From assembly GCA_002082585.1 (NCBI GenBank), contig CP020563.1, positions 7,000,001 through 7,064,000 of the forward strand: 64,000 nucleotides of DNA. Reading direction: 5' to 3'. Below are positions 24,006 to 56,418 of the stretch, piece after piece. Origin of the DNA: Kitasatospora albolonga. GTDB lineage: Bacteria > Actinomycetota > Actinomycetes > Streptomycetales > Streptomycetaceae. The notes beneath the pieces were generated by a model that was not told where the DNA came from, did not search any database, and was given only the letters and a program-made list of their open reading frames with translations. Numbering within the stretch: position 1 is the first letter of the stretch; every line of letters starts with the position of its first letter. The position numbers and the translations under genes were made by a program.

Positions 24006-24070
24006 GGCACTCCCATGCTTTCTCGAGTCTCGGCAAGGTGCGAACGCCACTGTGCCGACCCTCACGCACG

Positions 24071-24105
24071 GTTTCCTGATGGTCGTTCGGCGATAGACTG
24101 CGGCC
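24071..24105 (+). promoter_or_regulatory. Putative leaderless promoter of the SARP-like regulator
   Basis: TAGACT at 24094-24099 is a reasonable -10 box. The ATG follows after six bases, so transcription would begin at or next to the start codon. There is no ribosome site before the ATG, which agrees with a leaderless mRNA. The -35 is weak (GTTTCC, 17-base spacer). Confidence 0.4.
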
Positions 24106-26940
24106 ATGCGTTACGGGGTGCTCGGTCCGCTGGCCGTCTGGGACGCCGAGGGGCGGCCGGTCAGGGTTCCCGAAGCCAAGGTGCGTGCCCTGCTGGCGAA
24201 TCTCCTCGTCCACGGCGGCGGACCGGTTCCGGCGGACCGCCTGATCGAGGACCTGTGGGCGGACAACCCGCCGGGCGGGTCCGCCAACACCTTGCAGACC
24301 AAGGTCTCCCAGCTCCGCCGTGTGCTGGGCCGGGACCAGGTGGTCCGGGAGCCCGCCGGTTACCGGCTGCTGCTCGCGGACGACGTGCTCGACGCGCTGA
24401 GGTTCCAGGAGCTGGCCGACCGCGCCCGCGCCCACCGGGAACCGGCGGTGAAGGCGGACCTGTTCGCCGACGCGCTCGCGCTCTGGCGGGGCCCGGCCTA
24501 CGCGGACGTGGCCGAGGCCCTGTTCGCCCGCGGCGAGATCGCCCGGCTGGAGGAGCTGCGCCTCGACGTCGTCGAGGACCACGCCGAGGTGCGGCTGACC
24601 CTGGGCGAGCACACGGCGCTGGCGGCGGAGCTGGGGACGCTGGTGGCCCGGCACCCGCTGCGCGAGCGGCTGCGCATGGCCCATATGCGCGCCCTGTACC
24701 GGGCCGGGCGGCAGGGTGACGCGTTGCAGAGCTTCCAGGAGCTGCGGCGGGAGCTGGCCGAGGAGCTCGGGGTGTCACCCGGCCCCGAGGTCTCCGCGCT
24801 CCACGAGGCGATCCTGCGCCAGGAACCGCGGCTGGCCACCCCCGCGGTCGGCTCGCTGTCGTGCCGTACGAACCTGCCCGCCCCGCTGACCCCGCTGATC
24901 GGCCGGCGCGAGGCGGCCGAACAGGTGCTGGCCCGGCTGGACCCCGGCGCGAACACCCGCCTTCTCACCCTCACCGGTCTCGGCGGTGTGGGCAAGACCC
25001 GGCTGGCGATCGCCGCCGCCCGTGAGGTGGCCGGGCAGTTCACCGACGGGGTGTGGCTGGTCGAACTGGCCGGTCTGGGCGCCGCGTCAACCCCGGACGA
25101 CATCGCCGAACGCGTCATCACGACGCTGGGCCTGTGCGACACCGCGGTGACCGAACCGGACCTGGAAGACCTGGTGGGCTGGCTGTGCCGGGCGGTGGCC
25201 GACAAGCAGCTGCTGATCCTGCTGGACAACTGCGAGCACCTCATCGAGCCGGTCGCCGTGCTCGCCAACGCCGTCCTGTCGGCCGTCCCCGCCGCGCACC
25301 TCCTCCTCACCAGCCAGGAAGCCCTGGACATCCCCGGCGAGGTGGTGCACCCCGTACCGCCGCTGGCGCTGCCGAAGGACACCGACCCGCAGACGGCCGC
25401 CCGCTCCAGCGCCGTCGAACTGTTCGTGGAGCGGGCCGCCGCCGCAGCGCCCGGCTTCGTCCTCGACGCGGAGAACGCGGCGGCCGTCTCCGCCGTCTGC
25501 CGCCGCCTCGACGGCATCCCGCTCGCCCTGGAAATCGTGGCGTCCCGGCTGCGGACGCTGAGCCCGCACGAGCTCGCCGCCCGCCTGGACGACCGGTTCG
25601 CCCGGCCCGACGCCCGGGTGCGCGGACTGCCGGACCGCCAGCGGACGCTGCGGGGCATGCTCGACTGGAGCTGGCAGCTGCTGAGCGAGGACGAGCGCAC
25701 CGTGCTGCGCCGCCTCGTCGTCCACGCCGACGGCTGGGCCATGCCCTCCGCCCAGGCGGTCTGCGCCGACGACGGCCTCCCCGCCGGACGCGTCCCCGAC
25801 CTGCTGTCCCGGCTGGTGGACCGCTCACTGGTGGTCCGCGAGGGCAACCGGTTCCGGCTGCTCGAATCGGTGGCCGCCCACGGCGCCGAGCGACTGGCGG
25901 AGGCGGGCGAGGAGAGCGCCGTACGCGAGCGGTACGTACGCCACTGCACCGAGCTGGCCGAACGGGAGGACGAGCTGCTGCGCGGCCCGGACCAGCGGCG
26001 CTCCCTGGAGCGCCTCAACGCCGAGACCGTCAACCTGCGCCGCGCCCTGGACCTCGCGGTCACCCACGGCGCCGCCGAGTACGCGGTACGGCTCGTGAAC
26101 GCGCTGGCCTGGTACTGGTTCCTGCGCGGGCGGTTCACCGAGGCCCGCAGGTCGCTCCGGGCGGCGCTGGCGGCCGGTGAGGGGGCCACGCCGGACGCCC
26201 GCCTGACGGCGCGGATCTGGCTGACCGGGATGGAGCTGCGCACCTCGCAGACCGGCGCGGTGCCCGGCCCGGCGGACGAGGACCTCGGCGCCGGGGTCGG
26301 GGACCCGGTGCTGCGCGCCCGGCTGCGGTGGTTCGTCGGCACCGGGCTGACCGGCAGCGGCCGGCACCGCGAGGGGCGCCGCCTGGTGGAGGCGAGCCTG
26401 ACCGGTGCACGGGCCGCCGGGGACCGCTGGGGCGAGGCCGCCGCCCTGGTCGAGCTCGCGAGCCACGCCCCGGCCCGGGACGGATCGGCGGAGCTGGGCG
26501 CCGCGCTGTTCCGCGAGGCAGGCGACCGCTGGGGCCAGCTCCGGGCCACCCGGGCCCTGGCGCTCGCGGCGGAGGACGAGGGCGACCGCGTACGGACGGA
26601 ACGCCTGCACCGCGAAGGTCTCCTGATGGCCGAGGAACTGGGCCTGTGGACCGAGGCCGTCGAGACGCTGACCCGGCTCGGCGAGACCGCCCTCGCCGAC
26701 GGCCGTACCGAGCGGGCGACGGAGCTGTACGAGCGCGCGCGCTCCGTGTCGGCCGAACGCGCCTACACCCGGGGCGAGATCCGGGCCGAGATCGGCCTGG
26801 GGCACGCCGCACGGCTCCGCGGCGACCGGGACGCCGCCACGGACCACCTGAACCGGGCGCTGGCCAAGAGCCGTGCGTCGGGCCACGGCGTCCATGCCGA
26901 TGCCGCGCTGGCGGAACTGAATCTCGTCCCCCGGCCCTGA
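24106..26940 (+). CDS. SARP-like regulator with BTAD, NB-ARC ATPase and TPR-like domains
   Basis: 944 residues in the AfsR-like layout. Residues 1-95 form the OmpR-type winged helix (MRYGVLGPLAVW, TLQTKVSQLRRVLG). Residues 95-245 are the bacterial transcriptional activation domain (LFADALALWRGPAYADV, RQGDALQSFQELRRELAEELG). Walker A (GLGGVGKT) is near residue 297 and Walker B (LLILLDNCEHL) near 370. The C-terminal third is helical and TPR-like. Such proteins bind direct heptameric repeats upstream of biosynthetic genes and activate them. It is next to the NRPS gene, in the same direction, and no TTA codon was noticed in it. Confidence 0.88.
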   Translation: MRYGVLGPLAVWDAEGRPVRVPEAKVRALLANLLVHGGGPVPADRLIEDLWADNPPGGSANTLQTKVSQLRRVLGRDQVVREPAGYRLLLADDVLDALRFQELADRARAHREPAVKADLFADALALWRGPAYADVAEALFARGEIARLEELRLDVVEDHAEVRLTLGEHTALAAELGTLVARHPLRERLRMAHMRALYRAGRQGDALQSFQELRRELAEELGVSPGPEVSALHEAILRQEPRLATPAVGSLSCRTNLPAPLTPLIGRREAAEQVLARLDPGANTRLLTLTGLGGVGKTRLAIAAAREVAGQFTDGVWLVELAGLGAASTPDDIAERVITTLGLCDTAVTEPDLEDLVGWLCRAVADKQLLILLDNCEHLIEPVAVLANAVLSAVPAAHLLLTSQEALDIPGEVVHPVPPLALPKDTDPQTAARSSAVELFVERAAAAAPGFVLDAENAAAVSAVCRRLDGIPLALEIVASRLRTLSPHELAARLDDRFARPDARVRGLPDRQRTLRGMLDWSWQLLSEDERTVLRRLVVHADGWAMPSAQAVCADDGLPAGRVPDLLSRLVDRSLVVREGNRFRLLESVAAHGAERLAEAGEESAVRERYVRHCTELAEREDELLRGPDQRRSLERLNAETVNLRRALDLAVTHGAAEYAVRLVNALAWYWFLRGRFTEARRSLRAALAAGEGATPDARLTARIWLTGMELRTSQTGAVPGPADEDLGAGVGDPVLRARLRWFVGTGLTGSGRHREGRRLVEASLTGARAAGDRWGEAAALVELASHAPARDGSAELGAALFREAGDRWGQLRATRALALAAEDEGDRVRTERLHREGLLMAEELGLWTEAVETLTRLGETALADGRTERATELYERARSVSAERAYTRGEIRAEIGLGHAARLRGDRDAATDHLNRALAKSRASGHGVHADAALAELNLVPRP

Positions 26941-27146: not shown

Positions 27147-30100
27147 GTGGGGATGGCAGCTGAATTCAAGGCCCTCGAATTAACCGGCTTCCAGCGCGAC
27201 ATCTGGGCGGCCGAGGCGCGAACACCGGGGAACTGCCAATTCAACGTACTGGTCCACGAACGGCTGGAGGGTGCCGTCGACCGGGAGCTGCTCGGCGCCT
27301 GTCTGGCCCGTGCGGTGCGCGCGCACGACGCCTTCCGGCTGCGGTTCGGCGAGGACGGCGACGGCGTTCCCCGGGTCCGGCGCATCCCCGAGGCGCCGGA
27401 CGCCCCGCCGCTGTCCTGGGATCACCTCGACCTCTCCGGTGAGCCCGACCCCTCCGGCGCGGTACGGGCCCGGTGCGAGCAGGAGCTGAGCCGGCCGCTG
27501 GATCTGCGGAACGGGCCGTTGTTCCGGGCCGCCGTGCTCACCGAAGGGCCGGACGCCGTCCACCTCGTCCTGACCGCGCACCACATCGTGACCGATGCCT
27601 GGGCGCTGAACGCACTGACCTTGCGGATACTTTCCGACTACCGCATCCGCGCGTCCCGAAATGCCCTTCCGGCCTCCGGGGAAAAGGACGCCGATCCGGC
27701 CGACCGGGACGATTCACCTTCGTACTGGGATTCCATCCGGGAATTCGGATACCGGGCCGACGATGCCGACCGCGATACCGGCCGTGAGAACGACCGCGCG
27801 TTCTACCGGAATTATCTGGCGGGTACCGAGCCCGCTCTCTTCACCCGGTCCGGCGCCACGCGGCCCGGACGCGGGCGGCACTCCTTCGCCGTCGGCGAGG
27901 AGCTGGTCGGGCGCATCCTCGACGCCGGGGCGTCCCCCTTCCCGTACCTGCTCTCGGCGCTCGCCGTATGCCTCGCACGCGTCCACCAGGCGGACGAGGT
28001 CGTCATCGGCGTGCCCTTCCTGAACCGGCGGACCGAGGACGAGCGCGCGACCGTCGGCCAGTTCGCCAACAACCTGCCCCTGCGGATCGCGGTGGCGGAG
28101 GATCTGCCCCTGGTCGACCTCGCCGACCACGTACGCAAGCGGATCGACGAGCTGAGGGAGCACGAGCGGCTGCCCTTCGGCGACATCCTCCGCGAGGCGC
28201 CCACGCAGGAGGCCCACGGCCGTCGGCTGTTCGATGTCACCGCCTCCTACCTGCGGTTTCCCCGACCGCCGGAGATCCCGGGCGTGCACCGGACCACCAC
28301 GATCATGGCCCCGGTCCACGCCACCGACGCGCTCTCCCTCATGATCCAGGCGTTCGAGGACGAGCCGGGGCTGCGCGTCGACCTGGACTACGCCGACGAC
28401 GTGTTCGACGGGCACCTCACGGCCGAGGCGCTGGCCGGGCACATCGGTGAACTCCTCCGCCACGGACTGGACTTACGGGAGCTGCCGGTCTCGGCGCTGC
28501 CCATGCTGACCGAGGACGAGTACGAGGACGTCGTACGCCGCCGTCAGGGCGCCCCCGTGCCCTACCCCCGGGAGAAGACACTGCACCAGCTCTTCACCGA
28601 GCAGGCGGCGCGCACCCCCGGACTGACCGCCGTGGTCGACGGCTCCTCGGGCGCCACGCTGACCTTCGCCGAGCTCGACCGGCTCTCCAACCAGGTGGCG
28701 CGGGCGCTGCGCGAGCGGGGCGCCGGACCCGGCGAACGGGTCGCGATCCTCGCGGAGCGCGGCCCGGAGCTGCTGCCCGGGCTCCTCGGCATCCTCAAGG
28801 CGGGCGCCGCCTACGTACCCGTCGATCCCGGCTACCCGCCCGCGCGCATCCGGCTGCTCCTGGAGGACTGCGGGGCGAAGCTGGTCCTGCGCGGCGCGCA
28901 GGAGGTCCCGGAGCTGCCCACCGGAGCCCCGGTGCTCCGGATCTCCGAGCTGACCCAGGGCTCCGACCGGCCGCTCGGCCCCACCGCGTACGCGGACGAC
29001 CTCGCCTACACCATCTACACCTCCGGTTCGACCGGCCGCCCCAAGGGCGTGATGGTCGAGCACCATGCGGTGGGGAACCGGCTGATGTGGATGCAGCGCC
29101 GCTATCCCATAGGCCCGGGCGACACACTTCTTCAGAAGACGCCCATCTCGTTCGACGTCTCGGTGTGGGAACTGCTGTGGTGGGCCGTCCAGGGCGCCCG
29201 GGTGGTGCTGCTGCCGCCGGGCGCGGAGAAGGACCCGGCGCAGATCGCGCGCACGGTACGCGAGCACCGGGTGAGCGTGATCCACTTCGTGCCCTCGATG
29301 CTCGGCCCGTTCCTCGACCTGCTGGAGGACGACCCGGAGAAGGCCGAGGGAGTCCGCTCGCTGCGCTCTGTTTTTTGCAGCGGTGAAGCTCTGCCGCCGG
29401 AGCGGGCCACGCAGTTCAACCGGGTCTTCGGTGGCGGTGACGCGCCCCGCCTGGTCAACCTCTACGGCCCCACCGAAGCCGCGGTCGACGTGACCTATTT
29501 CGACTGCCCGCCCGCCTCCGAAGGGCCCGTCACCCGGGTGCCCATCGGGCGCCCCGTGGAGAACACCACGCTCTACGTGCTCGACCGGCACGGCCGCCCC
29601 CAGCCCGTCGGCGTCCCCGGCGAACTGCACATCGGCGGTGTCCAGGTCGCCCGCGGCTATCTGAACCGGCCTGAACTCACCGCCGAACGCTTCGTCAAGG
29701 ACCCCTTCGCCCCCGGCGGCCGCCTCTACCGGACCGGGGACCTGGCCCGGCTGCTGAACGACGGCACCGTCGAATACCTCGGCCGGAACGACGACCAGGT
29801 GAAGATCCGCGGCAACCGGGTCGAACTGGGCGAGGTGCAGAACGCCCTCGTCGCCCTGGACGCCATCCGGGACGCCGTGGTCGTCGACCACCTGCCCGGC
29901 GGCGGCCGGGGGCCGGTCCTCGTCGCGTACTGCACGGCCGACCGCGAACTCGACCCGGCCCGGCTGCGCTCGGCCCTCGGCGAGGCGCTGCCCGCCTATA
30001 TGATCCCGGCGCACTTCGAACGCCTCGACGCCCTTCCCCTCACACCCAACGGCAAGGTCGACCGCGCGGCGCTGCCCGCCCCGGACACCGGCGCGTCCGA

Positions 30101-33100
30101 CGACCCGGACAGCGGGCCGCGCACCACCCGGGAGGCCGTGCTCGCCGGTATCTGGGCGCAGGTGCTCGGCGTCGACCGGGTCGGCGTCCACACCGACTAC
30201 TTCGTGATCGGGGGCGACTCGATCAGCATGCTCCGGGTGCGGGCGCTCGCGGAGAAGGCGGGCCTCCGGTTCTCGACCGACGACTTCGTCCGCAACCCGA
30301 CCGTGGCGGCCCTCGCCGAGTGCGCCGAGGCCACGGCCGACACCGACACCGACACCGACACCGGCACCGGCACCGGGCCCGGCGCTACGGACGGCTCCGC
30401 GGCCCCGGCCCCCTTCGCCCTGGTCACCTCGGTGGACCGCGCCCGTCTGGAGACGTACGAGGACGCCTACCCGCTCACCCGCCTCCAGCTCGGCCTGCTC
30501 TTCCACAGCCGTGAGAAGCAGGACTCCGCGACGTACAAGGACGTCTTCCGCTACAGCCTGGCCATGCCGTGGCGGGAGCCGGAGTTCCGGGCGGCCTTCG
30601 ACCGGCTCGTCCGGCGCCATCCGGTGCTGCGGTCCTCCTTCGCCCTCGGCGGCCACACCGAGCCGCTCCAGATCGTCCAGCCGTCCGTCGAGGGCGGGCT
30701 GAGCGTCGAGGATCTGCGGGACGCCACGGCGGGGGAGGCCGAGGCCGCCATCGAGGAGCACATCGCGAGCCGACGCCGGTACGACTACCGGTTCGACCGC
30801 GCGCCGCTCCACCACTTCCGGGCCTTCGTCCTGCCCGGCACCGTCGAACTGGTCCTCAGCTTCCACCACGCCATCCTCGACGGCGGCAGCGTCGCCAACC
30901 TCGTCTCCGAACTCCTCCGGGACTACGGCCATCTGCTCCGGATGGACCTGGAGCCGGTGCCGGACACCGCGCCGCCCCCGGCCGCGCTGCACGTCGCCCA
31001 GGAGCGCGCCGCCATCGACGCCAAGGAGGGCCGCGCCTACTGGCAGAACCTGCTCTCCGGCGCGCCCCAGCTCCACCTGGAGAGCTTCCGCCCCCATGAG
31101 GCGCCGGGGAGCGACGAGCGGGTGGAGTGCGACCTGCACCTGCCCGCCGAGCTCGTCGGTGCCGTACGCGCCACCGCCCGCGACCGGCGGGTCCCGGTGA
31201 AGTCGGTCCTGTTCGCCGCGCACGTCCTGCTGCTGCGTGCCCTGTCCGGCGAGCGGGACGTGACCACCGGTCTCGTGGCCCACACCAGGCCGGACACCGA
31301 GGGCGCGGAGCGCACCTGCGGACTCTTCCTCAACACCCTGCCCGTCCGGGTGGACGCGGAGCAGGCCACCTGGTTCGACGTGGTGGGGCACGTCCTGGAC
31401 CGGGAGCGGGAGGCCCATCCGTACCGGCGCGTGCCCCTGGCGGTCATCCAGGAGGACCTGGGCCGCTCCACCCTGGTCGACACCCTGTTCAACTACATCC
31501 ACTTCCGCCAGCTCGGCGAGGTCTTCCGGACCCCCGGCATCACCAGCCGCGGCTTCGCGGTCCGGGAGGAGACGAACTTCTCCCTCGTCGTCAACGCCAT
31601 GGTCGACCCGGTGGACGAGGGCATCCGGCTCCGGCTCGACTTCTCCGGACAGTCCTTCACCCCGGCGCAGGCGCGGCTCTACACCGACACGTACGTACGG
31701 ATTCTCCGCCGCCTCGCCGAAGACCCCGACGGCGCGGTCGAGTTCGGCTTCCTCGCACCGGCCTCGCCGCCCGTGCGGACCGGGCGCCCGCCGGTCAACG
31801 TGGTCCGCGCCTTCGAGGACCGCGCACGCCGGACGCCCGAGGCGCAGGCGGTGGTCGCCGACGGGCTGACGTGGAGCTACGCGGAGCTGGACCGGCTCGC
31901 CACGCGGATCGCCACGGGGCTGCTGGACTCGGGGGTGCGCCCCGGCGAACGCGTCGGCATCGCCATGGGCCGTACGCCCGCGACCGTCGCCGCCATCCTG
32001 GGCACCGCGAAGGCCGGGTGCTCGGCCATGCCGCTGGACACCGCCTATCCGGTGGACCGGCTGCGGGCCATGATCGAACAGGGCCGCCCCGCCCGCGTCG
32101 TCGTCGACGAGGAGCACCAGGACCTCCTGGAGCCCACGGTCCCCCTTCTCCCGTACGGGGCACTGGCGGCGACCGACCGCACCGCCGACCTCCCGGAGAT
32201 CTCCGAGGACGACGAGGTGTACCTCCTGTTCACCTCGGGCTCGACGGGCCGGCCGAAGGGGGTGTCGGCACCGCACCGCTCCCTGTCCAACCTGGTGGCC
32301 TGGCAGAACGGGATCGCCAGCACCGCCGAGGGCGCCCGTACGGTGCAGTACGCGCCGCTCAGCTTCGACGTCTCCTTCCAGGAGCTGTACGCCACCCTGT
32401 GCGGCGGCGGCACGCTGGTCGTCGTCACGGAGGAGCTGCGGCGGGACATGCCCGGCCTGCTGCGGCTGCTGGACCGGGAGCGCGTCGAGCGCATGCACCT
32501 GCCCTATGTCGCCCTCCAGCAACTGGCGGAGGCATCGGTCACCCTCGGCCTGGTGCCCCGGAGCCTGCGCGTGCTGTGCTCCTCGGGCGAGCAGTTCCGG
32601 ACCACGGACGAGATCCGCCGCTTCTGCGCCTCCCTCGGCGACGCCGTGATCGACAACCACTACGGCCCCACCGAGACCCACGCCGCCGCCTTCCACGAGA
32701 TGACCGGCGAGCCCGGCGCGTTCCCCGCGCTGCCCCCGGTGGGGCAGCCCATCCACGGCGCCCGGCTGCTGGTCCTGGACGCCCGGACGCGCCCGGTCCC
32801 GACCGGGGCCCGGGGCGAGATATACATCGGCGGAGCCGGTCTGGCCGACGGCTACGCGGGCCGCCCCGACCTGACCCAGGAACGGTTCGTACCCGCCCCG
32901 GACGGCGACGGGCTGCTCTACCGCACCGGCGACGTCGGCATGGTCCTGCCCGACGGGAACGTGGTCTGCCTCGGCCGCGCCGACCGGCAGGTCAAGATCC
33001 GCGGCTACCGGGTCGAACCGGCGGAGATCGAACTGGTTGCCGCCGGGGCCCCGGTGGGCGGCCCCGACGTGATCACCGACATCGCCGTCACCGCCCGGCG

Positions 33101-34436
33101 CGACGCGGCGGGCGACACCTCCCTCATCGCCTTCCTGGTCGGCGACGCCGAGCGCGCGGACCTGGACGGCCTGCGGCGCCACCTGCGCGCGAAGCTGCCG
33201 GACTACATGGTGCCCGCCCACTTCGTCTGGCTGCCCGCCATCCCGCTCACCCCCAACGGCAAGCGCGACGAGGCCGCGCTGCGGCGGATACAGCCGGAGC
33301 GCGCGGAGCCAGCCGGGCGCGTCGCCCCCCGGGACACCCACGAACGGGTCCTGGCCGAGATGCTGGCCGATCTGCTCCACGTACCCGAAGTGGGGGCGCA
33401 CGACAACCTGTTCGACCTCGGCGCCACCTCGATCACGGCGATGCGCCTGGTCGTCCTCCTGGAGGAGCGGTTCGGCACCGCGATCCCGCTGTCGGACTTC
33501 ATCGTCGCGCCGACCGTGGCCGAACTGGCCGGGCGGCTCCGCTCGGCGGGCACCACGGCCACCGGGTTCGACCCGCTGGTCGCGATCCGGCCCGAGGGCA
33601 CCCGGCCGCCGCTGTTCTTCGCGCACCCCATGGGCGGCAATGTGCTCTGCTACGTACCCTTCGCCAAGCGTCTCCCGCCGGACCAGCCCTTCTACACCTT
33701 CCAGGCGGCCGGGGCTGACGTCGGCACCGAGCCGGTGCGCGGCCTCGAACAGCTCGCCGCCGACTACATCGAGGCGATGCGCCGCGTCCGGCCGACCGGG
33801 CCCTACCACCTCGGCGGCTGGTCCTTCGGCGGGTTCGTCGCCTTCGAGATGGCCCGTCAGCTCCACGCCGCCGGGGAGCGCGTCGGCTCGCTGATCCTGC
33901 TGGACACGACGGCGCTCAACCCGGGACGACGGCCGTGGACCGACGACGAGGCCCTGCTCGGCTGGTTCTTCTGGGAACTGCTCTGGCTCCAGCACGGCAG
34001 CGCCACGGCCGGTGACCTCCTGCCGCCCGGTCTGGACACGCTGGAGGAGAAGTTCGCGTTCATGACCCGGCTGGCCATCGACGAGGGCGTCCTGCCAGCG
34101 GGCAGCGGCGACGCCGTCGTCCGCCGCCTGTTCCGGGTGTACGAGGCCAACTGGCGCTCGGCCTTCGACTACCGGCCCGGTGTCGTGGACTACGACGTCC
34201 TGCTCGTCCGGGCCCGCGATCCGCTGCCGGGCGTCCTGCTGGAGATGCACACCGCGATCGACAGCATGCACGCCGACGAGACCAACGGCTGGCGGGAGCG
34301 CACCCGCGGCCGCCTCTCGGTGGTCGACGCCGAGGGCGACCACCTCACGATCATGGAGGAACCGCGCGTGTCCGACATCGTCGGCACGGTGCTCAGGGCC
34401 ATGGACATCCGGACGAGCGAGAGCGGGCAGAGCTGA
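27147..34436 (+). CDS. Two-module NRPS: C-A(Ser)-T-C-A(Pro-like)-T-TE
   Basis: 2429 residues from GTG 27147 (GGAG nine bases upstream; ATG 27153 is also possible). Domains: C1 about 10-450 with HHIVTDAW (second His and Asp present, final Gly replaced by Ala); A1 475-980; T1 990-1060 with GGDSIS, Ser1025; a Thr-Asp/Gly linker 1065-1077; C2 1105-1540 with HHAILDG; A2 1553-2045; T2 2060-2130 with LGATSI, Ser2095; TE 2150-2420 with GWSFGG, Ser2226, and His2399. By alignment to GrsA the A1 pocket is DVWHFSLVDK, the EntF serine code. The A2 pocket is DVQHCSHAAK, sharing D-V-Q, H and K with proline codes. C1 at the N-terminus implies that an acyl group caps Ser. TTA codons at 12 and 443 imply bldA control. 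With the next gene it resembles pyrrolizidine NRPSs. Confidence 0.93.
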   Translation: MGMAAEFKALELTGFQRDIWAAEARTPGNCQFNVLVHERLEGAVDRELLGACLARAVRAHDAFRLRFGEDGDGVPRVRRIPEAPDAPPLSWDHLDLSGEPDPSGAVRARCEQELSRPLDLRNGPLFRAAVLTEGPDAVHLVLTAHHIVTDAWALNALTLRILSDYRIRASRNALPASGEKDADPADRDDSPSYWDSIREFGYRADDADRDTGRENDRAFYRNYLAGTEPALFTRSGATRPGRGRHSFAVGEELVGRILDAGASPFPYLLSALAVCLARVHQADEVVIGVPFLNRRTEDERATVGQFANNLPLRIAVAEDLPLVDLADHVRKRIDELREHERLPFGDILREAPTQEAHGRRLFDVTASYLRFPRPPEIPGVHRTTTIMAPVHATDALSLMIQAFEDEPGLRVDLDYADDVFDGHLTAEALAGHIGELLRHGLDLRELPVSALPMLTEDEYEDVVRRRQGAPVPYPREKTLHQLFTEQAARTPGLTAVVDGSSGATLTFAELDRLSNQVARALRERGAGPGERVAILAERGPELLPGLLGILKAGAAYVPVDPGYPPARIRLLLEDCGAKLVLRGAQEVPELPTGAPVLRISELTQGSDRPLGPTAYADDLAYTIYTSGSTGRPKGVMVEHHAVGNRLMWMQRRYPIGPGDTLLQKTPISFDVSVWELLWWAVQGARVVLLPPGAEKDPAQIARTVREHRVSVIHFVPSMLGPFLDLLEDDPEKAEGVRSLRSVFCSGEALPPERATQFNRVFGGGDAPRLVNLYGPTEAAVDVTYFDCPPASEGPVTRVPIGRPVENTTLYVLDRHGRPQPVGVPGELHIGGVQVARGYLNRPELTAERFVKDPFAPGGRLYRTGDLARLLNDGTVEYLGRNDDQVKIRGNRVELGEVQNALVALDAIRDAVVVDHLPGGGRGPVLVAYCTADRELDPARLRSALGEALPAYMIPAHFERLDALPLTPNGKVDRAALPAPDTGASDDPDSGPRTTREAVLAGIWAQVLGVDRVGVHTDYFVIGGDSISMLRVRALAEKAGLRFSTDDFVRNPTVAALAECAEATADTDTDTDTGTGTGPGATDGSAAPAPFALVTSVDRARLETYEDAYPLTRLQLGLLFHSREKQDSATYKDVFRYSLAMPWREPEFRAAFDRLVRRHPVLRSSFALGGHTEPLQIVQPSVEGGLSVEDLRDATAGEAEAAIEEHIASRRRYDYRFDRAPLHHFRAFVLPGTVELVLSFHHAILDGGSVANLVSELLRDYGHLLRMDLEPVPDTAPPPAALHVAQERAAIDAKEGRAYWQNLLSGAPQLHLESFRPHEAPGSDERVECDLHLPAELVGAVRATARDRRVPVKSVLFAAHVLLLRALSGERDVTTGLVAHTRPDTEGAERTCGLFLNTLPVRVDAEQATWFDVVGHVLDREREAHPYRRVPLAVIQEDLGRSTLVDTLFNYIHFRQLGEVFRTPGITSRGFAVREETNFSLVVNAMVDPVDEGIRLRLDFSGQSFTPAQARLYTDTYVRILRRLAEDPDGAVEFGFLAPASPPVRTGRPPVNVVRAFEDRARRTPEAQAVVADGLTWSYAELDRLATRIATGLLDSGVRPGERVGIAMGRTPATVAAILGTAKAGCSAMPLDTAYPVDRLRAMIEQGRPARVVVDEEHQDLLEPTVPLLPYGALAATDRTADLPEISEDDEVYLLFTSGSTGRPKGVSAPHRSLSNLVAWQNGIASTAEGARTVQYAPLSFDVSFQELYATLCGGGTLVVVTEELRRDMPGLLRLLDRERVERMHLPYVALQQLAEASVTLGLVPRSLRVLCSSGEQFRTTDEIRRFCASLGDAVIDNHYGPTETHAAAFHEMTGEPGAFPALPPVGQPIHGARLLVLDARTRPVPTGARGEIYIGGAGLADGYAGRPDLTQERFVPAPDGDGLLYRTGDVGMVLPDGNVVCLGRADRQVKIRGYRVEPAEIELVAAGAPVGGPDVITDIAVTARRDAAGDTSLIAFLVGDAERADLDGLRRHLRAKLPDYMVPAHFVWLPAIPLTPNGKRDEAALRRIQPERAEPAGRVAPRDTHERVLAEMLADLLHVPEVGAHDNLFDLGATSITAMRLVVLLEERFGTAIPLSDFIVAPTVAELAGRLRSAGTTATGFDPLVAIRPEGTRPPLFFAHPMGGNVLCYVPFAKRLPPDQPFYTFQAAGADVGTEPVRGLEQLAADYIEAMRRVRPTGPYHLGGWSFGGFVAFEMARQLHAAGERVGSLILLDTTALNPGRRPWTDDEALLGWFFWELLWLQHGSATAGDLLPPGLDTLEEKFAFMTRLAIDEGVLPAGSGDAVVRRLFRVYEANWRSAFDYRPGVVDYDVLLVRARDPLPGVLLEMHTAIDSMHADETNGWRERTRGRLSVVDAEGDHLTIMEEPRVSDIVGTVLRAMDIRTSESGQS
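27180..27182 (+). promoter_or_regulatory. TTA codon at residue 12 of the NRPS
   Basis: In-frame TTA leucine codon near the 5' end of the NRPS gene, where bldA dependence has the strongest effect. A second TTA is at 28473-28475 (residue 443). Confidence 0.8.
30339..30377 (+). repeat. GACACC/GGCACC hexamer repeat in the T1-C2 linker
   Basis: A run of GACACC and GGCACC hexamers encodes Asp-Thr and Gly-Thr pairs between the first carrier domain and the second condensation domain. Length variation here would change only the linker. Confidence 0.75.
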
Positions 34437-34437
34437 C

Positions 34438-35679
34438 ATGGGAAAGACACGAAGCGCCATCGTCGTCGGCGCGGGCATCGGCGGACTGACCACGGCCATC
34501 GCGCTGCGGCGCACCGGCTTCGACGTGGAGGTGTTCGAACGGGCCCCGGAGCTGCGGGCCGCCGGATTCGGCCTCTCCGTGATGAGCAACGCCACCGCCG
34601 CGCTCGCCACCCTGGACATCGACCTCGGCCTGGAGAAGCGCGGCCGGGTGATGGAGACGTACCACGTCAAGGACCGCAAGGGCAGGCTGATCCGGGAGTT
34701 CCCCTTCCCCGAGATCACCCGGCGCATCGGCGTCCCGTGCGTGTGCATCAGCCGGGCCGATCTGCTCGCCGCGCTTCTCGATCAGATCGGGGACGTACCC
34801 ATCAGGCTGAACGCCGCCGCCGAAGGGTTCGAGGTGGCGGGCGACCGGGCCCGGGTGCTGCTCGCCGACGGCTCATCGGCCGAAGCCGATCTCCTGGTCG
34901 GCGCCGACGGGTTCAACTCGGCCGTCCGGCGGCAGCTCGCCGGGCCGGACGAACCCGCCCACGACAGCGGCTACATCGCTTGGCTCGGCATCACCGAATA
35001 CCGCCACCCCCGGTTCGCCCCCGGCTCCGTGGTCCATCTGTGGGGCGACGGGATGCGGTTCGGCCTGGTCGACATCGGCGGGGGCCGCCTCTACTGGTGG
35101 GGCACGAAGAACATGCCGTACGAGCGGTCCAGCACCTGGGACGGGGGCAAGGCGGGGGTGCTCGACGCCTACTCCGGCTGGCCGGACGAGGTCCGGGAGG
35201 CGATCCGGGTCACCCCGCCCGCCGACCTGCTCACCCTGAACACCCGGGACCGCTCGTTCCTCCGGCCCTGGGGCACGGGCCCGGTGACCCTCCTCGGGGA
35301 CGCCGCCCACCCGATGCTCACCAGCCTCGGCCAGGGCTCGGCCATGGCCATGGAGGACGCCGCCGTCCTCGCCCGGCACCTGCGCCACGCCCCGGACGTG
35401 CCACGGGGGCTGCGCGGCTACGAGGCGGCCCGGTACGACCGCACCCGGACGATGGTGGAGGCCACCCGCTCCATCAGCGAGTTCGAACAGTCGCAGGGGC
35501 CCGTACGCCGCCGGGTCCGCGACGCCTACTTCCGGTGGATGCCCCACCGGAAGCTGGTCGGCAAGCTCGAACCCGCGCTGACCTTTCCGGGCGACGGCAT
35601 CCTTCCCGGGACGTACGGGAGCGAGACCTACGGGAGTGGCACCTACGGGAGCGGGACCTACGAGAGGACGGACCGATGA
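34438..35679 (+). CDS. Class A FAD-dependent monooxygenase, candidate ring-contracting oxygenase
   Basis: 413 residues, starting one base after the NRPS stop codon. GAGIGG at residues 11-16 is the N-terminal dinucleotide motif, LLVGADGFNSAVR the DG motif, and LLGDAAHPMLTSLGQG the FAD ribityl GD motif. This is the p-hydroxybenzoate hydroxylase/zeaxanthin epoxidase fold. In legonmycin and pyrrolizixenamide pathways an FAD monooxygenase encoded beside the NRPS performs a Baeyer-Villiger-type oxidation that contracts the bicyclic NRPS product to a pyrrolizidine. That role is inferred here from gene order. The C-terminus carries four tandem TYGSG-like pentapeptides from a 15-bp DNA repeat. The stop overlaps the next start as ATGA. 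Confidence 0.88.
   Translation: MGKTRSAIVVGAGIGGLTTAIALRRTGFDVEVFERAPELRAAGFGLSVMSNATAALATLDIDLGLEKRGRVMETYHVKDRKGRLIREFPFPEITRRIGVPCVCISRADLLAALLDQIGDVPIRLNAAAEGFEVAGDRARVLLADGSSAEADLLVGADGFNSAVRRQLAGPDEPAHDSGYIAWLGITEYRHPRFAPGSVVHLWGDGMRFGLVDIGGGRLYWWGTKNMPYERSSTWDGGKAGVLDAYSGWPDEVREAIRVTPPADLLTLNTRDRSFLRPWGTGPVTLLGDAAHPMLTSLGQGSAMAMEDAAVLARHLRHAPDVPRGLRGYEAARYDRTRTMVEATRSISEFEQSQGPVRRRVRDAYFRWMPHRKLVGKLEPALTFPGDGILPGTYGSETYGSGTYGSGTYERTDR
35611..35670 (+). repeat. Four 15-bp tandem repeats at the monooxygenase C-terminus
   Basis: Units begin at 35611, 35626, 35641 and 35656 with consensus ACCTACGGGAGCGGG and encode TYGSE, TYGSG, TYGSG and TYERT. They lie beyond the folded domain, just before the overlapping stop/start. 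Confidence 0.8.
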
Positions 35680-36605
35680 ACGCCACCGCACCGCACGGAC
35701 CGCGCGGCAGGCGCCTGCCGCCCCACGGAGCGGTCGTCGTCACGGGCGCCTCGTCGGGGCTGGGCCGCGAATGCGCCCTGGAGCTGGAGAGCCGCGGATT
35801 CCAGGTGCTCGCGGGGGTCCGGCGCGAGGAGGACGGGGAGAAACTGCTCACCGAGGCGCGGTACGGCAGGCTCCACCACACCCTCATCGACATCACCGAC
35901 GAGGCGTCGGTACGGGCCTCCGCCGAACTCGTCGCCGACCGGTACGGCGGGCTGCGCGGCCTGGTGAACAACGCCGGGATCTGTGTCCCCGGCCCGCTGG
36001 AGTGCATCGACGGCGACCAGCTCCGCCACCAGCTCGACGTCAACCTGGTCGGGCACCTGTCGATGATCCGCGCGCACCTGCCGCTGCTGCGCCGGTCGAA
36101 CGGACGGATCGTCAACGTCACCTCCGGCCTCGGCAAGACCGCCGTGCCGTTCCTCGGCGCCTACTCCGTCGCCCAGTTCGCCAAGGAGGCGCTGAGCGAC
36201 GCCCTGCGGCGCGAGCTGGCGCCCAGCGGTGTCCGCGTCTCGATCGTGGCACCGGGCGCCATCCTCACACCGATCTGGAGCAAGGTCTCCCAGGCGGGCG
36301 AACGCGCGCTGGGCGACGCCCCGCCTGCGGTCGCCGACCTCTACCGGTCCGCCCTCCAGGCGTTCCTGGAAGGCAACGCCCAACTGGCGATGGCGAGCCG
36401 GACCACCCCCGAGGACTTCGCCCGGACGGTCCTCCGCGCCCTGACCGACGTACGCCCCCGGGCGCGCTACTGGGCCGGTGCGGACGCCCGCCGGGCGGCC
36501 CTCCTGGCGCGGCTCCTTCCCGACCCGCTGCTGGACCGCCGGTTCCGGGGGATCACCGCCTTGGTGGGCGCGCCCGGCCCGGTGGGGAAGACCCCGGTTC
36601 CGTAG
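35676..36605 (+). CDS. Short-chain dehydrogenase with altered YxxxK motif
   Basis: 309 residues, classical SDR fold extended at the C-terminus. The cofactor motif is TGASSGLG (residues 23-30), then NNAG (98-101). Catalytic Ser150 lies in VNVTSGLG. The Tyr is Tyr163 in AYSVAQFAK, but the position four residues later, normally Lys, is Gln167, so the essential lysine is missing. It may be redox-poor, use another residue (Lys170 is three residues further), or act in a non-redox role. The ATG overlaps the preceding stop. It could dehydrogenate or reduce an alcohol/ketone on the bicyclic product if active. Confidence 0.85.
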   Translation: MNATAPHGPRGRRLPPHGAVVVTGASSGLGRECALELESRGFQVLAGVRREEDGEKLLTEARYGRLHHTLIDITDEASVRASAELVADRYGGLRGLVNNAGICVPGPLECIDGDQLRHQLDVNLVGHLSMIRAHLPLLRRSNGRIVNVTSGLGKTAVPFLGAYSVAQFAKEALSDALRRELAPSGVRVSIVAPGAILTPIWSKVSQAGERALGDAPPAVADLYRSALQAFLEGNAQLAMASRTTPEDFARTVLRALTDVRPRARYWAGADARRAALLARLLPDPLLDRRFRGITALVGAPGPVGKTPVP

Positions 36606-36717: not shown

Positions 36718-37242
36718 ATGGTTACGGAGCGAGATTTCAAGGACCTCATGGCCGACGTCTGCACTCCGGTGGCGGTGGTCACGGTGATGGCCGACGGCCT
36801 GCCCCACGGCACGACGGTCGGTTCGCTCACCTCGCTGTCCCTGCGCCCGCCCATGGTGACCGTCGCGCTGGCACACCGCTCCCGCCTGCTGCCGAAGATC
36901 CTGCGGGCCGAGCGGTTCGGCGTGAACCTGCTGGGCGCCGGGCAGGCGGGCGTCGCCGCCGCGTTCGCCTCCCCGGCCGCCGACCGGTTCGACACGGTCG
37001 ACTGGTGCCTGGACGACGGGCTCCCGCGTCTGCGGGAGGCACCGGGCTGGCTCGCGTGCGGGCTCCAGCGGTACGTCACCGGCGGGGACCACCTCCTGCT
37101 GCTCGGCCTGGTGGTCCAGGTCTCCGGCACCCGGGACACCGCCCCGCTGGTCTACGGCCGCCGGACGTTCGGCACGCACTCCGCGTTCGCGCGGGAAACC
37201 CCCCGACCCATCACCGACCACATCACGGCATTCGCCCACTGA
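36718..37242 (+). CDS. Flavin reductase, HpaC/ActVB-like
   Basis: 174 residues of the FMN-binding split-barrel flavin reductase family (TPVAVVTVMADGLPHGTTVGSLTSLSLRPPMVTVAL; FGVNLLG; GLVVQVSG; the C-terminal FGTHSA replaces the more common YR/H motif). It should supply reduced FMN or FAD to a partner oxygenase. The partner is almost certainly the HsaA-type monooxygenase that starts 14 bases downstream. The start has a strong GGGAGAAGG ribosome site, although a tandem duplication separates it from the SDR. Confidence 0.87.
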   Translation: MVTERDFKDLMADVCTPVAVVTVMADGLPHGTTVGSLTSLSLRPPMVTVALAHRSRLLPKILRAERFGVNLLGAGQAGVAAAFASPAADRFDTVDWCLDDGLPRLREAPGWLACGLQRYVTGGDHLLLLGLVVQVSGTRDTAPLVYGRRTFGTHSAFARETPRPITDHITAFAH

Positions 37243-37256
37243 GACGGAGACCCTTC

Positions 37257-38465
37257 ATGACCGACCCCCGGACCGGGACGGCCCGCCCTTCCCCCGAACC
37301 CTCCGAACTCCTCCGTACCGCCCGCGAACTCGTCCCCCACCTCGCCCGCAACGCCGAACAGGGGGAACGCGACCGGCGGCTCACCGACGAAACCGTCAAA
37401 CTCCTCACCGACGCGGGCATGTTCAGGCTGGCCGTGCCCCAGCGGTACGGCGGTCACGAAGTGTCCCTGCGCACCCTGGTCGACGTGTCCGCGGTCCTCG
37501 CCGAGGGCGACGGCAGCAGCGCGTGGGTGGTCGCGGTCGGCAGCTCGCTGGCGTGGGCCGTCAGCCTCTTCCCCGAACAGGCCCAGGACGAGGTGTTCGG
37601 CGCCGACCCCGACACCAGGGTGTCCGGCGTGCTCACCCCGAGCGCCACCGCCCGGCGGACCGAGGGCGGATACCGGGTGTCGGGCCGCTGGCACTACGCC
37701 TCCGGCTCCTGGCACGCCGACTGGTCCGTGATCGGCTTCCCGGTGCCGGACGCCACGGGGCGGATCGTCGACCAGGGCATGGCCCTGATACCCGCCGCCG
37801 ACTACACGGTGGAGGACACCTGGTTCGTCGCCGGTATGCGGGCCACCGGCAGCAACGCCCTGGTGGCCGAGGACATCTTCGTACCGGACCACCGGGTGGT
37901 GTCGGTGCCGAAGGCGATGGCGGGCGACTACCCGGTGCAGCGGTCCGGCGGCCGGCAGCCCCGTTCGGCCTTCGAGCAGTTCCTCACCGCCGCCCCTCTG
38001 GTCGCCACCCAACTCGGCCTCGGCCGCGCGGCTTTGGAGCTGATAAAGGAGAAGTCAGCGGAAAAAGCGATCACGTTCACCTTCTTCGAGAAGCAACGCG
38101 ATTCCACGGCCTTCCAGTTGCGGATCGCGGAGGCGGCCCAGAAGATCGACACCGCCCACCTGCACGTCCACCGCGCCGCCGCCGACATCGACGGGGCGGC
38201 GGAGCGCGGCGAGCCCCTGGACGCCCTCGGGCGCATCCAGGCCCGGGCGGACCTCAGCGGAGCCGTCGGACACATCACCGAGGCGATCGACATCCTGCTG
38301 ACCGCGCACGGAGCGGCCAGCTTCGCCGACAGCAACCCGCTCCAGCGGATCTGGCGGGACTCGGCCGTGAGCGCCCGGCACGCCATCCTCCAGCCCGCGA
38401 TGATCAAGGAAATGTACGGCAAGACCCTGCTGGGCATCGACGAGCCCATCTCCCCGCTGGTCTGA
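37257..38465 (+). CDS. Acyl-CoA dehydrogenase-fold flavin monooxygenase (HsaA type)
   Basis: 402 residues. N-terminal helical domain (PHLARNAEQGERDRRLTDETVKLLTDAGMFRLAVPQRYGGHE), the substrate-side SSAWVVAVGSSLAW, beta domain with SGRWHYASGSWHADWSVIG and MRATGSNAL, and a C-terminal helical bundle ending RIWRDSAVSARHAI. This is the PF08028-like group that uses reduced flavin from a separate reductase to hydroxylate small molecules. That fits the reductase gene directly upstream. Members of this fold also include dehydrogenases such as KtzA that act on carrier-bound chloroamino acids, which is an alternative worth noting beside a halogenase. Function on a particular carbon is not assignable. 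Confidence 0.85.
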   Translation: MTDPRTGTARPSPEPSELLRTARELVPHLARNAEQGERDRRLTDETVKLLTDAGMFRLAVPQRYGGHEVSLRTLVDVSAVLAEGDGSSAWVVAVGSSLAWAVSLFPEQAQDEVFGADPDTRVSGVLTPSATARRTEGGYRVSGRWHYASGSWHADWSVIGFPVPDATGRIVDQGMALIPAADYTVEDTWFVAGMRATGSNALVAEDIFVPDHRVVSVPKAMAGDYPVQRSGGRQPRSAFEQFLTAAPLVATQLGLGRAALELIKEKSAEKAITFTFFEKQRDSTAFQLRIAEAAQKIDTAHLHVHRAAADIDGAAERGEPLDALGRIQARADLSGAVGHITEAIDILLTAHGAASFADSNPLQRIWRDSAVSARHAILQPAMIKEMYGKTLLGIDEPISPLV

Positions 38466-38492: not shown

Positions 38493-38888
38493 ATGGCCGC
38501 ACGCGCGTACGGCACCAAGCAGGCGAACTGGCAGCAGTTCGCCGACACCCGGATCTACATCGGCGACCTGGCCGACGACGGGGTCCCGAAGTCGATGGGC
38601 GCGGGGTTCGCCAGCCTGCACCCCGGGGACGTCATGGAATGGGTGCCCAGCTACGACGAGTTCATCGTCGTCCTGTCCGGACGGTTCGCCGTGGACTTCG
38701 ACGGCGGTTCGGTGACCGCGGGCCCCCACGAGCTGGTGTGGGTGGAACAGGGCGACCCCGTCACCTTCCGGGCCGACGGCGAGGAGGTTCTGCTCGCCTT
38801 CGGCACCAACCCGCCCTGGCAGACCACCCCGGAGACCCTGGCGAGCGCGGCCATGTTCCGGCCGCTCGCCGCCTCCCCGGTCGACTGA
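38493..38888 (+). CDS. Cupin-domain protein
   Basis: 131 residues forming a single cupin: SLHPGDVMEWVPSYDEFIVVLSGRFAVDFDG, then LVWVEQGDPVTFRADGEEVLLAFG. Of the usual metal ligands only acidic residues are obvious; the double His of motif 1 is replaced by VPSYDE, so metal binding is uncertain. It resembles EutQ-like cupins. In the operon it could be an isomerase, cyclase or dehydratase partner. It is the sixth gene of the NRPS operon. Confidence 0.78.
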   Translation: MAARAYGTKQANWQQFADTRIYIGDLADDGVPKSMGAGFASLHPGDVMEWVPSYDEFIVVLSGRFAVDFDGGSVTAGPHELVWVEQGDPVTFRADGEEVLLAFGTNPPWQTTPETLASAAMFRPLAASPVD

Positions 38889-45865: not shown

Positions 45866-45910
45866 TGGTTGCTCCCAGGCCGGATCAGGTTCGGGACCGT
45901 GCTGGTTCGC

Positions 45911-46636: not shown

Positions 46637-46707
46637 CGGTGCGCCTTCCTGGAAGGTGGCGCGCGGCGCCGGGAAAGCCGCCGCGCGCCCGGCCGTCCCG
46701 GGGAACG

Positions 46708-47679: not shown

Positions 47680-47719
47680 GGCTACTCCATCCTCTGGTTC
47701 TCGATGCGGGGTGAACGGA

Positions 47720-47983
47720 TTACGCGGTCGGCTCTCCGGCGATCCGCGCATGCAGTTCCGCGATCGCGCTCCCGAGCGACTCCTCGAACAGGACTTTCAC
47801 ATCCAGTTCATGACCGAAGTGCTGCTGGACGCGGGTGTTGAGGTTCATGGCGAGGAGCGAGTGACCGCCGAGGTCAAGGAAGTTGTCCGCCGGGGAAACA
47901 TCGGGCTCCTCGATGAATTCACTCACCCAGTCGACAATCAGCTTCTCCAGCTCGTGCACGCCCTCAGGAAGGGAAACGGACAT
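47720..47983 (-). CDS. Discrete peptidyl carrier protein
   Basis: 87 residues: four-helix carrier with the phosphopantetheine site Ser42 in LDLGGHSLLAMN. Good ribosome site (GAGAGGAG). It is the first gene of the halogenase operon, so it should hold the amino acid during chlorination. It has no attached catalytic domain, so a second enzyme must pass its cargo to the NRPS or release it. The stop codon is TAA. Confidence 0.92.
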   Translation of the reverse strand: MSVSLPEGVHELEKLIVDWVSEFIEEPDVSPADNFLDLGGHSLLAMNLNTRVQQHFGHELDVKVLFEESLGSAIAELHARIAGEPTA

Positions 47984-56342: not shown

Positions 56343-56418
56343 CGGGCAACGTACGGGCGGACCACGGCTGTTCGAGCGGTTCGAGCGGGAGTCCAGCGGG
56401 CCGCCCTACGCTGCTGAT

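What the first reader, a model, noticed from the sequence alone, without database searches (positions are those of the whole stretch)
27147..35679. Candidate chlorinated pyrrolizidine pathway: Ser/Pro-like NRPS plus adjacent FAD monooxygenase
C-A(Ser)-T-C-A(Pro-like)-T-TE followed at once by a class A FAD monooxygenase matches the minimal legonmycin/pyrrolizixenamide gene pair. Combined with a halogenase cassette in the same cluster, the parsimonious product is a halogenated or halogen-derived pyrrolizidine. Chlorinated pyrrolizidines such as the clazamycins are, as I recall, known from Streptomyces. I am not aware of a described cluster with this exact gene content.
Basis: partly seen in the sequence, partly recalled or inferred. 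Interest (0 to 1): 0.9.

Follow-up and report, generated by a model that had tools for sequence, protein, structure and literature searches.

The report
Likely clazamycin (chlorinated pyrrolizidine) gene cluster
A 17-gene block in a Streptomyces-type genome looks like the recipe for a chlorinated two-ring alkaloid, probably the old antibiotic clazamycin, in which proline seems to be chlorinated on a separate small carrier protein before it is built in; if so, a compound known since 1979 gets a testable genetic origin.

Summary
Window 27153-34436 encodes a C-A-T-C-A-T-TE synthetase; an LgnC-type monooxygenase (34438-35679) follows one base later, with the published motif and a place in the synthetase-linked clade. 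The halogenase cassette is real: T, a SyrB2/CytC3-type chlorinating enzyme, TE and a stand-alone A domain (44324-47983). The 17-gene block 21476-47983 recurs in six other Streptomyces loci, and from synthetase to T in a seventh; tested flanking genes do not. In a sample of 392 Streptomyces genomes the same four carry the close halogenase and the close monooxygenase.

One refinement: the stand-alone A has a proline-type code, while the synthetase's own A2 has a changed pocket (DVQHCSHA) in 9 of 9 halogenase-linked loci and in 0 of 47 comparators. So proline is most likely loaded on the free T, chlorinated there, and the chloroproline then used by the synthetase. The tailoring genes fit clazamycin: a reductase for the missing C1 carbonyl, an aromatic-type hydroxylase for 7a-OH, an amidase for the free imine. 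Clazamycin came from S. puniceus, which NCBI merges with S. californicus; an S. californicus strain carries the block. The product, the chlorination site and all enzyme activities are untested.

The parts
21476..22339 (+). LysR-type regulator, left edge of the conserved block
   Evidence: Pfam LysR_substrate/HTH_1; 82-90% in the 6 relatives where this stretch was read
22440..24107 (-). MFS exporter
   Evidence: Pfam MFS_1; 82-90% in the same 6 relatives
24106..26940 (+). SARP/AfsR-like pathway regulator (BTAD, NB-ARC, TPR)
   Evidence: Pfam; 79-87% in the same 6 relatives
27153..34436 (+). Bimodular NRPS C-A-T-C-A-T-TE
   Evidence: Pfam, motifs
28578..30068 (+). NRPS A1, serine code DVWHFSLVD (approximate edges)
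31800..33275 (+). NRPS A2, checked catalytic motifs intact, pocket DVQHCSHAA seen only in halogenase-linked loci (approximate edges)
34438..35679 (+). LgnC-type FAD Baeyer-Villiger monooxygenase (YWWGTKN, GDAAH, H200/R207/Y219/W221)
35676..36605 (+). Short-chain dehydrogenase/reductase, 4-base overlap with the monooxygenase; proposed C1 ketone reductase
   Evidence: Pfam adh_short, start
36718..37242 (+). Flavin reductase, probable partner of the next gene
   Evidence: Pfam Flavin_Reduct; HsaB-like but below that model's cut-off
37257..38465 (+). Acyl-CoA-dehydrogenase-fold flavin monooxygenase, oxygenase part; best solved relative XiaF; proposed C7a hydroxylase
38493..38888 (+). Small cupin, role unknown
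   Evidence: Pfam Cupin_2; 88-96% in relatives
38905..40260 (+). PapA-like acyltransferase, HxxxDG motif intact
   Evidence: Pfam PapA_C, motif
40296..41723 (+). Amidase-signature hydrolase with K86, GSSGG, GSVR; proposed N-deacylase
   Evidence: Pfam Amidase, motifs
41658..42959 (-). LuxR-type regulator with AAA domain
   Evidence: Pfam GerE, AAA_16
42956..44281 (-). Na+/H+ exchanger-family transporter
   Evidence: Pfam Na_H_Exchanger
44324..45865 (-). Stand-alone A domain, proline-type code DVQFVAQVV
45911..46636 (-). Type II thioesterase (GHSMG)
   Evidence: Pfam Thioesterase, PDB best RifR
46708..47679 (-). Fe(II)/2-oxoglutarate aliphatic halogenase, HxA (WHQA) metal site, CytC3/SyrB2 family
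47720..47983 (-). Stand-alone T (carrier) domain, GGHS; right edge of the conserved block
   Evidence: Pfam PP-binding

Best explanation
The block 21476-47983 makes a chlorinated pyrrolizidine, most likely clazamycin or a close relative. The stand-alone A domain activates L-proline and loads it on the stand-alone T domain. The Fe/2-oxoglutarate halogenase chlorinates an unactivated ring carbon of prolyl-S-T; from the recalled clazamycin structure this would be C3 of proline, which becomes C7 of the product. The type II thioesterase releases or passes on the chloroproline, and the remodelled A2 of the synthetase takes it. The synthetase joins an acyl group, serine (dehydrated to dehydroalanine) and chloroproline, and its TE closes the indolizidine. 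The LgnC-type monooxygenase converts this to the pyrrolizidine. The SDR reduces the C1 ketone, and loss of water gives an electron-rich aminopyrrole (the PapA-like enzyme or cupin may help). The flavin reductase/oxygenase pair hydroxylates C7a, and the amidase removes the acyl group to leave the free imine. Shown here: genes, motifs, synteny, codes and co-distribution. Inferred: every chemical step and the product.
For: NRPS architecture and monooxygenase. LgnC-type motif and residues: papers; window. Halogenase: TIGR01762 419 bits, CytC3 500 bits and SyrB2 390 bits. Stand-alone T. The whole block was read in 6 other loci, including S. californicus NRRL B-2098; in a seventh (G326) only synthetase to T was fetched; in Streptomyces sp. 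SM11 it lies on two contigs. Tested flanking frames not conserved. The same 4 of 392 Streptomyces genomes hold the halogenase at 92% or more and the monooxygenase at 87% or more, 11-12 kb apart; an overlapping order-wide sample gives 5 of 293, all 5 with both (in one of them, SM11, on two contigs). Stand-alone A has a proline-type code in 8 of 8 loci; A2 is DVQHCSHA in 9 of 9 halogenase-linked loci and 0 of 47 comparators. Two sister loci without halogenase (G004, G501) keep a DVQF-type A2. Halogenase residue 241, next to iron ligand H240, is Gly in 8 of 8 pyrrolizidine-type copies and Ala in 16 of 16 others compared. Clazamycins lack the C1 carbonyl, are 7a-hydroxylated iminopyrrolizinones and interconverting 7a-epimers (PMC7871033, passages); if diastereomers, they need a further stereocentre, as a ring CHCl would give. 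They were isolated from S. puniceus (PMC6385001, passage), which NCBI resolves to S. californicus.
Against: No product, knock-out or assay exists here. The chlorine position and formula of clazamycin are recalled, not read. The clazamycin producer strains themselves were not seen in any collection; a shared species name does not show that they hold the block. The cupin and PapA-like genes have no forced role in clazamycin. Bridgehead hydroxylation of legonmycin can be spontaneous or due to other host enzymes, so the flavin pair may do something else. A2 could accept a proline altered otherwise than by chlorine, and its substrate and that of the stand-alone A are read from codes only.
Confidence: 0.68

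Rival explanations
1. Chlorinated pyrrolizidine, but not clazamycin: the cluster makes an unreported chlorinated relative (for example an acylated or differently oxidised one) by the same prolyl chlorination route.
For: Cupin and PapA-like acyltransferase have no forced place in clazamycin; the link to clazamycin rests on species naming and gene-to-structure fit.
Against: Amidase, SDR and flavin pair each match a feature that separates clazamycin from the acylated keto pyrrolizidines; the block is in S. californicus, the name NCBI gives S. puniceus.
Confidence: 0.2
2. Cryptic chlorination: chlorine on proline is only a leaving group, lost to make a dehydroproline or a fused cyclopropane, so the product contains no halogen.
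For: CurA, CmaB, KtzD, JamE and BesD are called cryptic halogenases (PMC8407142, passage). KtzA, the cyclopropane-forming partner of KtzD, is an acyl-CoA-dehydrogenase-like flavoprotein (recalled), and the block has one protein of that fold.
Against: That protein matches the HsaA/XiaF monooxygenase group better than acyl-CoA dehydrogenases and sits behind a flavin reductase. No structure of a product is at hand to decide.
Confidence: 0.1
3. A variant of the main reading: the thioesterase hands chloroprolyl directly from the free T to T2, as LgnA does for threonine from T0 to T1 in legonmycin, and A2 is a relic.
For: LgnA precedent in the same alkaloid family (PMC8748450, parts 1 and 2 of 8 read); the T-halogenase-TE unit is shared with other cassettes.
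Against: A2 keeps all checked catalytic motifs and one fixed, changed pocket in 9 of 9 loci, as expected if it still works on a new substrate.
Confidence: 0.3
4. Two neighbouring pathways: an ordinary pyrrolizidine cluster beside an independent chloro-amino-acid cassette.
For: The synthetase half and the cassette half are on opposite strands, converging, with a regulator and a transporter between.
Against: The halves lie together in all 7 relatives read on one contig, co-occur in the same 4 of 392 and 5 of 293 genomes, and the A2 pocket changes with the cassette.
Confidence: 0.04

Closest known systems
Legonmycin pathway (lgnA-D, Streptomyces sp. MA37)
   Same: LgnC-type Baeyer-Villiger monooxygenase with YWWxTKN and the same H200/Y219/W221; indolizidine-to-pyrrolizidine route; an extra A-T and a type II TE feeding a pyrrolizidine synthetase.
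   Different: In lgn the extra A-T loads threonine for the first position, and the minimal set lgnA-D has no halogenase. Here the extra A has a proline-type code, A1 is still present in the synthetase, and halogenase, SDR, flavin pair, cupin, acyltransferase and amidase are added.
Pyrrolizixenamide / azabicyclene / bohemamine-type pyrrolizidine clusters
   Same: C1-A1-T1-C2-A2-T2-TE synthetase with serine-type A1 in nearly all comparators, beside the monooxygenase.
   Different: A2 has a DVQ- or DIQ-type code in 46 of 47 comparators (exception L190), none with H278, C299 or A330. No halogenase was found near them in the stretches examined (10 kb either side for the loci; genome-wide positions for the other 34).
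CytC3 / SyrB2 aliphatic halogenase cassettes
   Same: HxA iron site, neighbouring T, A and TE; CytC3 is the closest solved relative.
   Different: CytC3 works on carrier-bound L-2-aminobutyrate, SyrB2 on L-threonine and KthP on a piperazyl group (PMC8407142, passages); here the paired A domain has a proline-type code. Related cassettes L132 and L133 have A codes DFWNVGMVH, threonine-type by recalled tables.
Clazamycins A and B (B = antibiotic 354)
   Same: 7a-hydroxylated iminopyrrolizinones lacking the C1 carbonyl, from S. puniceus; predicted end point of this gene set.
   Different: No gene cluster for them was found in the papers searched; that this block makes them is inferred.

Membership tests
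Bacterial pyrrolizidine alkaloid cluster (legonmycin/pyrrolizixenamide type) | Bimodular NRPS C-A(Ser/Thr)-T-C-A(Pro)-T-TE | tested here: met
   Domains; A1 serine code; A2 lies in the pyrrolizidine A2 clade although its pocket differs
Bacterial pyrrolizidine alkaloid cluster (legonmycin/pyrrolizixenamide type) | LgnC-type monooxygenase with YWWxTKN and GDAAH | tested here: met
   YWWGTKN and GDAAH present; clade 100/99 with NRPS-linked enzymes
Bacterial pyrrolizidine alkaloid cluster (legonmycin/pyrrolizixenamide type) | Catalytic H200, Y219, W221 | tested here: met
   Same residues at the same numbers; numbering from PMC11457151 (passages); LgnC S48 and Q350 do not fall on the same numbers
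Bacterial pyrrolizidine alkaloid cluster (legonmycin/pyrrolizixenamide type) | Product is a proline-derived 5+5 bicycle | not testable with these tools
   Needs metabolite analysis
SyrB2/CytC3 carrier-dependent Fe/2OG halogenase | Metal-site carboxylate replaced (HxA/G instead of HxD/E) | tested here: met
   WHQA with His118 and second His at 240
SyrB2/CytC3 carrier-dependent Fe/2OG halogenase | Family score above curated cut-off | tested here: met
   TIGR01762 419 bits against cut-off 226.3
SyrB2/CytC3 carrier-dependent Fe/2OG halogenase | Neighbouring carrier and A domain | tested here: met
   T 47720-47983 and A 44324-45865
SyrB2/CytC3 carrier-dependent Fe/2OG halogenase | Chlorinates aminoacyl-S-T | not testable with these tools
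   Needs in vitro assay
Clazamycin biosynthetic gene cluster | Genes for chlorination of an sp3 carbon, C1 deoxygenation, 7a-hydroxylation and N-deacylation | tested here: inconclusive
   Candidate genes for each are present but assignments are inferred
Clazamycin biosynthetic gene cluster | Present in clazamycin producers | tested here: inconclusive
   Present in S. californicus NRRL B-2098, the species name NCBI gives S. puniceus; producer strains themselves not seen

The most novel reading that the evidence does not exclude
This is the unassigned biosynthetic locus of clazamycin. It contains the first carrier-dependent iron halogenase that works on proline, recruited as a T-halogenase-TE unit from threonine-type cassettes and paired with a proline A domain, while the synthetase's own proline A domain was re-tooled (H278, C299 and A330 seen in no comparator; H322 and A331 seen singly in a few) to take chloroproline.
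Probability: 0.58. Interest if true: 0.8.

Novelty: new variant of a known kind. Interest (0 to 1): 0.72.

Why it matters
Clazamycins were described in 1979-1980, and no gene cluster for them turned up in the papers searched here. This block makes their biosynthesis directly testable by single-gene deletion in Streptomyces. If the reading is right, it adds an enzyme that chlorinates an unactivated ring carbon of carrier-bound proline, which would be a useful catalyst. It also gives a natural before-and-after example of how an NRPS A domain changes its pocket to accept a halogenated amino acid, with sister clusters that lack the halogenase as the unchanged state.

Tried and rejected
Rejected: that the flavin reductase and acyl-CoA-dehydrogenase-like pair is the halogenase; the oxygenase matches HsaA/XiaF-type monooxygenases, and the chlorinating enzyme is the PhyH-family protein. 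Rejected: that the PhyH protein is a hydroxylase; the metal-site carboxylate is missing and TIGR01762 is far above its cut-off. Rejected: that the stand-alone A lacks a carrier; a T domain was found just upstream of the halogenase. Rejected: that SnoaL, metallo-hydrolase and the genes beyond 48 kb belong to the block; no full-length orthologue was found in the stretches of relatives fetched, although a 23-residue stretch of the SnoaL frame matches L198 at 83%. The fetched flanks are short: about 8-11 kb beyond T and about 1.5-4 kb beyond LysR in the five relatives.

Led nowhere or weak: Rfam (gathering threshold) and tRNA scans gave no hits. The presence of the block in S. cinereoruber, which a review names as close to a clazamycin producer, could not be checked: only its monooxygenase (P0007, 88%) was listed. 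A search of 120 relatives found no other close halogenase (1 of 120, the window's own). Of its 17 loci with a long synthetase match, 3 (L001-L003) are orthologues and 13 of the other 14 gave A2 codes; L009, whose synthetase match is shorter (1642 residues) and whose monooxygenase starts at the locus edge region, was left out of the code reading. The A1 codes are read at columns anchored on A2 and are shifted; only the A2 codes are used. L177 (A1 DFWQVGMVC) and L190 (A2 DAHFVAAVV) are exceptions among the 33 comparators and were kept in the counts. H322 also occurs in L013, L015 and L182, and A331 in seven loci. SM11's synthetase and halogenase are on different contigs. P0122 was counted as pyrrolizidine-type only because it and monooxygenase P0010 are listed on contigs of the same length, 82,219 bases. 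On the second check of this report the cryptic-chlorination rival was raised from 0.08 to 0.1 because of the KtzA fold.
Full report
ANATOMY. The window lies in an 8.03-Mb single-contig genome. The synthetase (27153-34436) has domains C-A-T-C-A-T-TE with intact motifs. One base separates its stop from the monooxygenase start, and the SDR start overlaps the monooxygenase stop by four bases, as in a coupled operon. Then come a flavin reductase, a two-component flavin oxygenase, a cupin, a PapA-like acyltransferase and an amidase on the plus strand. On the minus strand, converging on them, are a LuxR-type regulator, an exchanger-family transporter, a stand-alone A domain, a type II TE, the halogenase and a stand-alone T. 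LysR, MFS and SARP genes lie to the left.

THE MONOOXYGENASE. PMC7820566 (part 1 of 5 read; passages) names YWWxTKN and GDAAH as marks of LgnC-like enzymes; PMC11457151 (passages) names H200, Y219 and W221 as important and R207 as of some impact. The window protein has YWWGTKN, GDAAH and H200, R207, Y219, W221 at the same numbers. In a tree of 39 proteins the 18 that sit beside a synthetase match of 1500 residues or more form one side of a branch with support 100/99.

THE HALOGENASE CASSETTE. The PhyH-family protein scores 419 bits against TIGR01762 'chlorinating enzyme' (cut-off 226.3) and is closest to CytC3 (500 bits) and SyrB2 (390 bits) among solved structures. The metal site is WHQA, without the carboxylate. 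PMC8407142 (passages) gives L-2-aminobutyrate as substrate of CytC3, L-threonine of SyrB2 and a piperazyl group of KthP. A T domain ends 40 bases upstream of the halogenase start as called here.

CONSERVATION. In Streptomyces sp. SM11 the block is on two contigs that end within it. Sixteen window frames left and right of the block found no orthologue in the stretches fetched from five of these relatives and SM11; weak SDR2 and ACAD2 matches at 28-33% fall on the block's own SDR and oxygenase. Of 392 Streptomyces genomes, 36 have a monooxygenase match at E 1e-80 or better and 41 a halogenase match at 1e-50 or better. The same 4 have the close forms (monooxygenase 87-100%, next 64%; halogenase 92-100%, next 74%), 11-12 kb apart. 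Six further genomes have both in more distant form, on different contigs or 786 kb or more apart. In an order-wide sample, 5 of 293 have the close monooxygenase, and all 5 have the close halogenase. A sample of 120 relatives gave 1 of 120, the window's own.

WHO ACTIVATES WHAT. Specificity codes were read from alignments with motif anchors; what a code means is recalled. A1 is DVWHFSLVD in the window and its orthologues (serine). The stand-alone A is DVQF[VI]AQV in 8 of 8 loci, close to DVQ[FY]ISQV, which 7 of 13 comparators show in their second A domain, and to the recalled proline code. The synthetase's own A2 is DVQHCSHA in 9 of 9 halogenase-linked loci (7, 2). None of 47 comparators (13, 33, 1) has H at 278, C at 299 or A at 330. 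The sister loci of Marinactinospora (DVQFISQV) and G501 (DVQFGSQV) come from genomes without a halogenase match. S. inusitatus and G326 each hold two pyrrolizidine synthetases, one with and one without the cassette, and the A2 codes differ accordingly. In the A-domain tree A2 of the halogenase group is sister to Marinactinospora A2 on a stem of 0.27, against 0.15 for A1 at the same fork. Five other halogenase cassettes have A domains with DFWNVGMVH (L132, L133) or DFW[NS][IV]GGVF (L129-L131); their T is 51-56%, halogenase 66-74% and TE 45-50% identical to the window's, while their A domains lie far from the stand-alone A. So T, halogenase and TE appear to have moved together and the A domain was exchanged. 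Within the halogenase, Gly241 next to iron ligand His240 separates 8 of 8 pyrrolizidine-type from 16 of 16 other copies (Ala); other fixed differences are at 21, 46, 65, 88, 129 and 140.

PATHWAY. The established route is acyl-dehydroamino acid-Pro on the synthetase, TE closure to an indolizidine, and Baeyer-Villiger ring expansion and contraction to a pyrrolizidine (PMC8748450, parts 1 and 2 of 8 read; PMC11457151, passages; PMC10880069, passages). Applied here with chloroproline it gives a chlorinated 3-acylamino-1-oxo-pyrrolizidine. PMC7871033 (passages) says that clazamycins lack the C1 carbonyl, are 7a-hydroxylated iminopyrrolizinones, and that A and B are interconverting 7a-epimers. If they are diastereomers, a second stereocentre is needed, which a ring CHCl would supply. 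The recalled formula C7H9ClN2O has the carbons of proline plus serine less one, and their two nitrogens. The SDR (C1 reduction), the XiaF/HsaA-like flavin pair (hydroxylation of an electron-rich ring) and the amidase (free imine) account for the difference. These assignments are inference. Locus L201 (G501, contig length as the record labelled Nocardiopsis ansamitocini) has SARP, MFS, amidase, PapA-like and SDR relatives, but none of flavin pair, cupin, exchanger or halogenase cassette was matched in L201-L202 beyond weak A, T and NRPS hits to another synthetase. This suggests that chlorination and the flavin step were added later.

LINK TO CLAZAMYCIN. Clazamycins come from S. puniceus (PMC6385001, passage; PMC7871033). 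The taxonomy tool resolves S. puniceus and S. californicus to one taxid. S. californicus NRRL B-2098 carries the block, and a 90%-identity halogenase cluster of 55 member sequences bears that species' name. Another producer is described as close to S. violaceorectus and S. cinereoruber (PMC10706944, passages); an S. cinereoruber monooxygenase is 88% identical, its neighbourhood not seen. Nine held papers have the word 'clazamycin', eight were listed, and six of those eight were opened in part. Searches joining pyrrolizidine with halogenase, SyrB2, chlorinated proline or S. californicus, and for chloroproline or antibiotic 354 (listings only), showed no report of this cluster. Subscription journals are largely outside that library, so a published account cannot be excluded.

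Noticed in passing
42956-44281; L097, L099, L100, L102, L129, L132: Exchanger-family (Na_H_Exchanger) genes sit near Fe/2OG halogenase genes in six other loci (36-41% identical), perhaps for halide or cation balance or self-protection.
   Followed up: partly
55218-58701: Epoxide hydrolase followed by a UvrA-like ABC protein, a pair that might go with a DNA-damaging metabolite; not found in the short flanks of the relatives fetched.
   Followed up: partly
L190 (G123:C88): A pyrrolizidine-type synthetase whose A2 code is DAHFVAAVV, unlike the other comparators; possibly another non-proline second residue.
   Followed up: no
L177 (G313:C15): A pyrrolizidine-type synthetase whose first A-domain match reads DFWQVGMVC rather than the serine code, possibly legonmycin-like.
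   Followed up: no
L015: Pseudomonas graminis pyrrolizidine-type synthetase with an extra A domain of threonine-type code before the Ser and Pro ones.
   Followed up: no
L201: Sister cluster with amidase, PapA-like, SDR, SARP and MFS relatives in another order and no halogenase; it may make a non-chlorinated deacylated relative.
   Followed up: partly
G000 whole genome: 63 condensation-domain matches in one 8.03-Mb genome, a heavy NRPS load.
   Followed up: no
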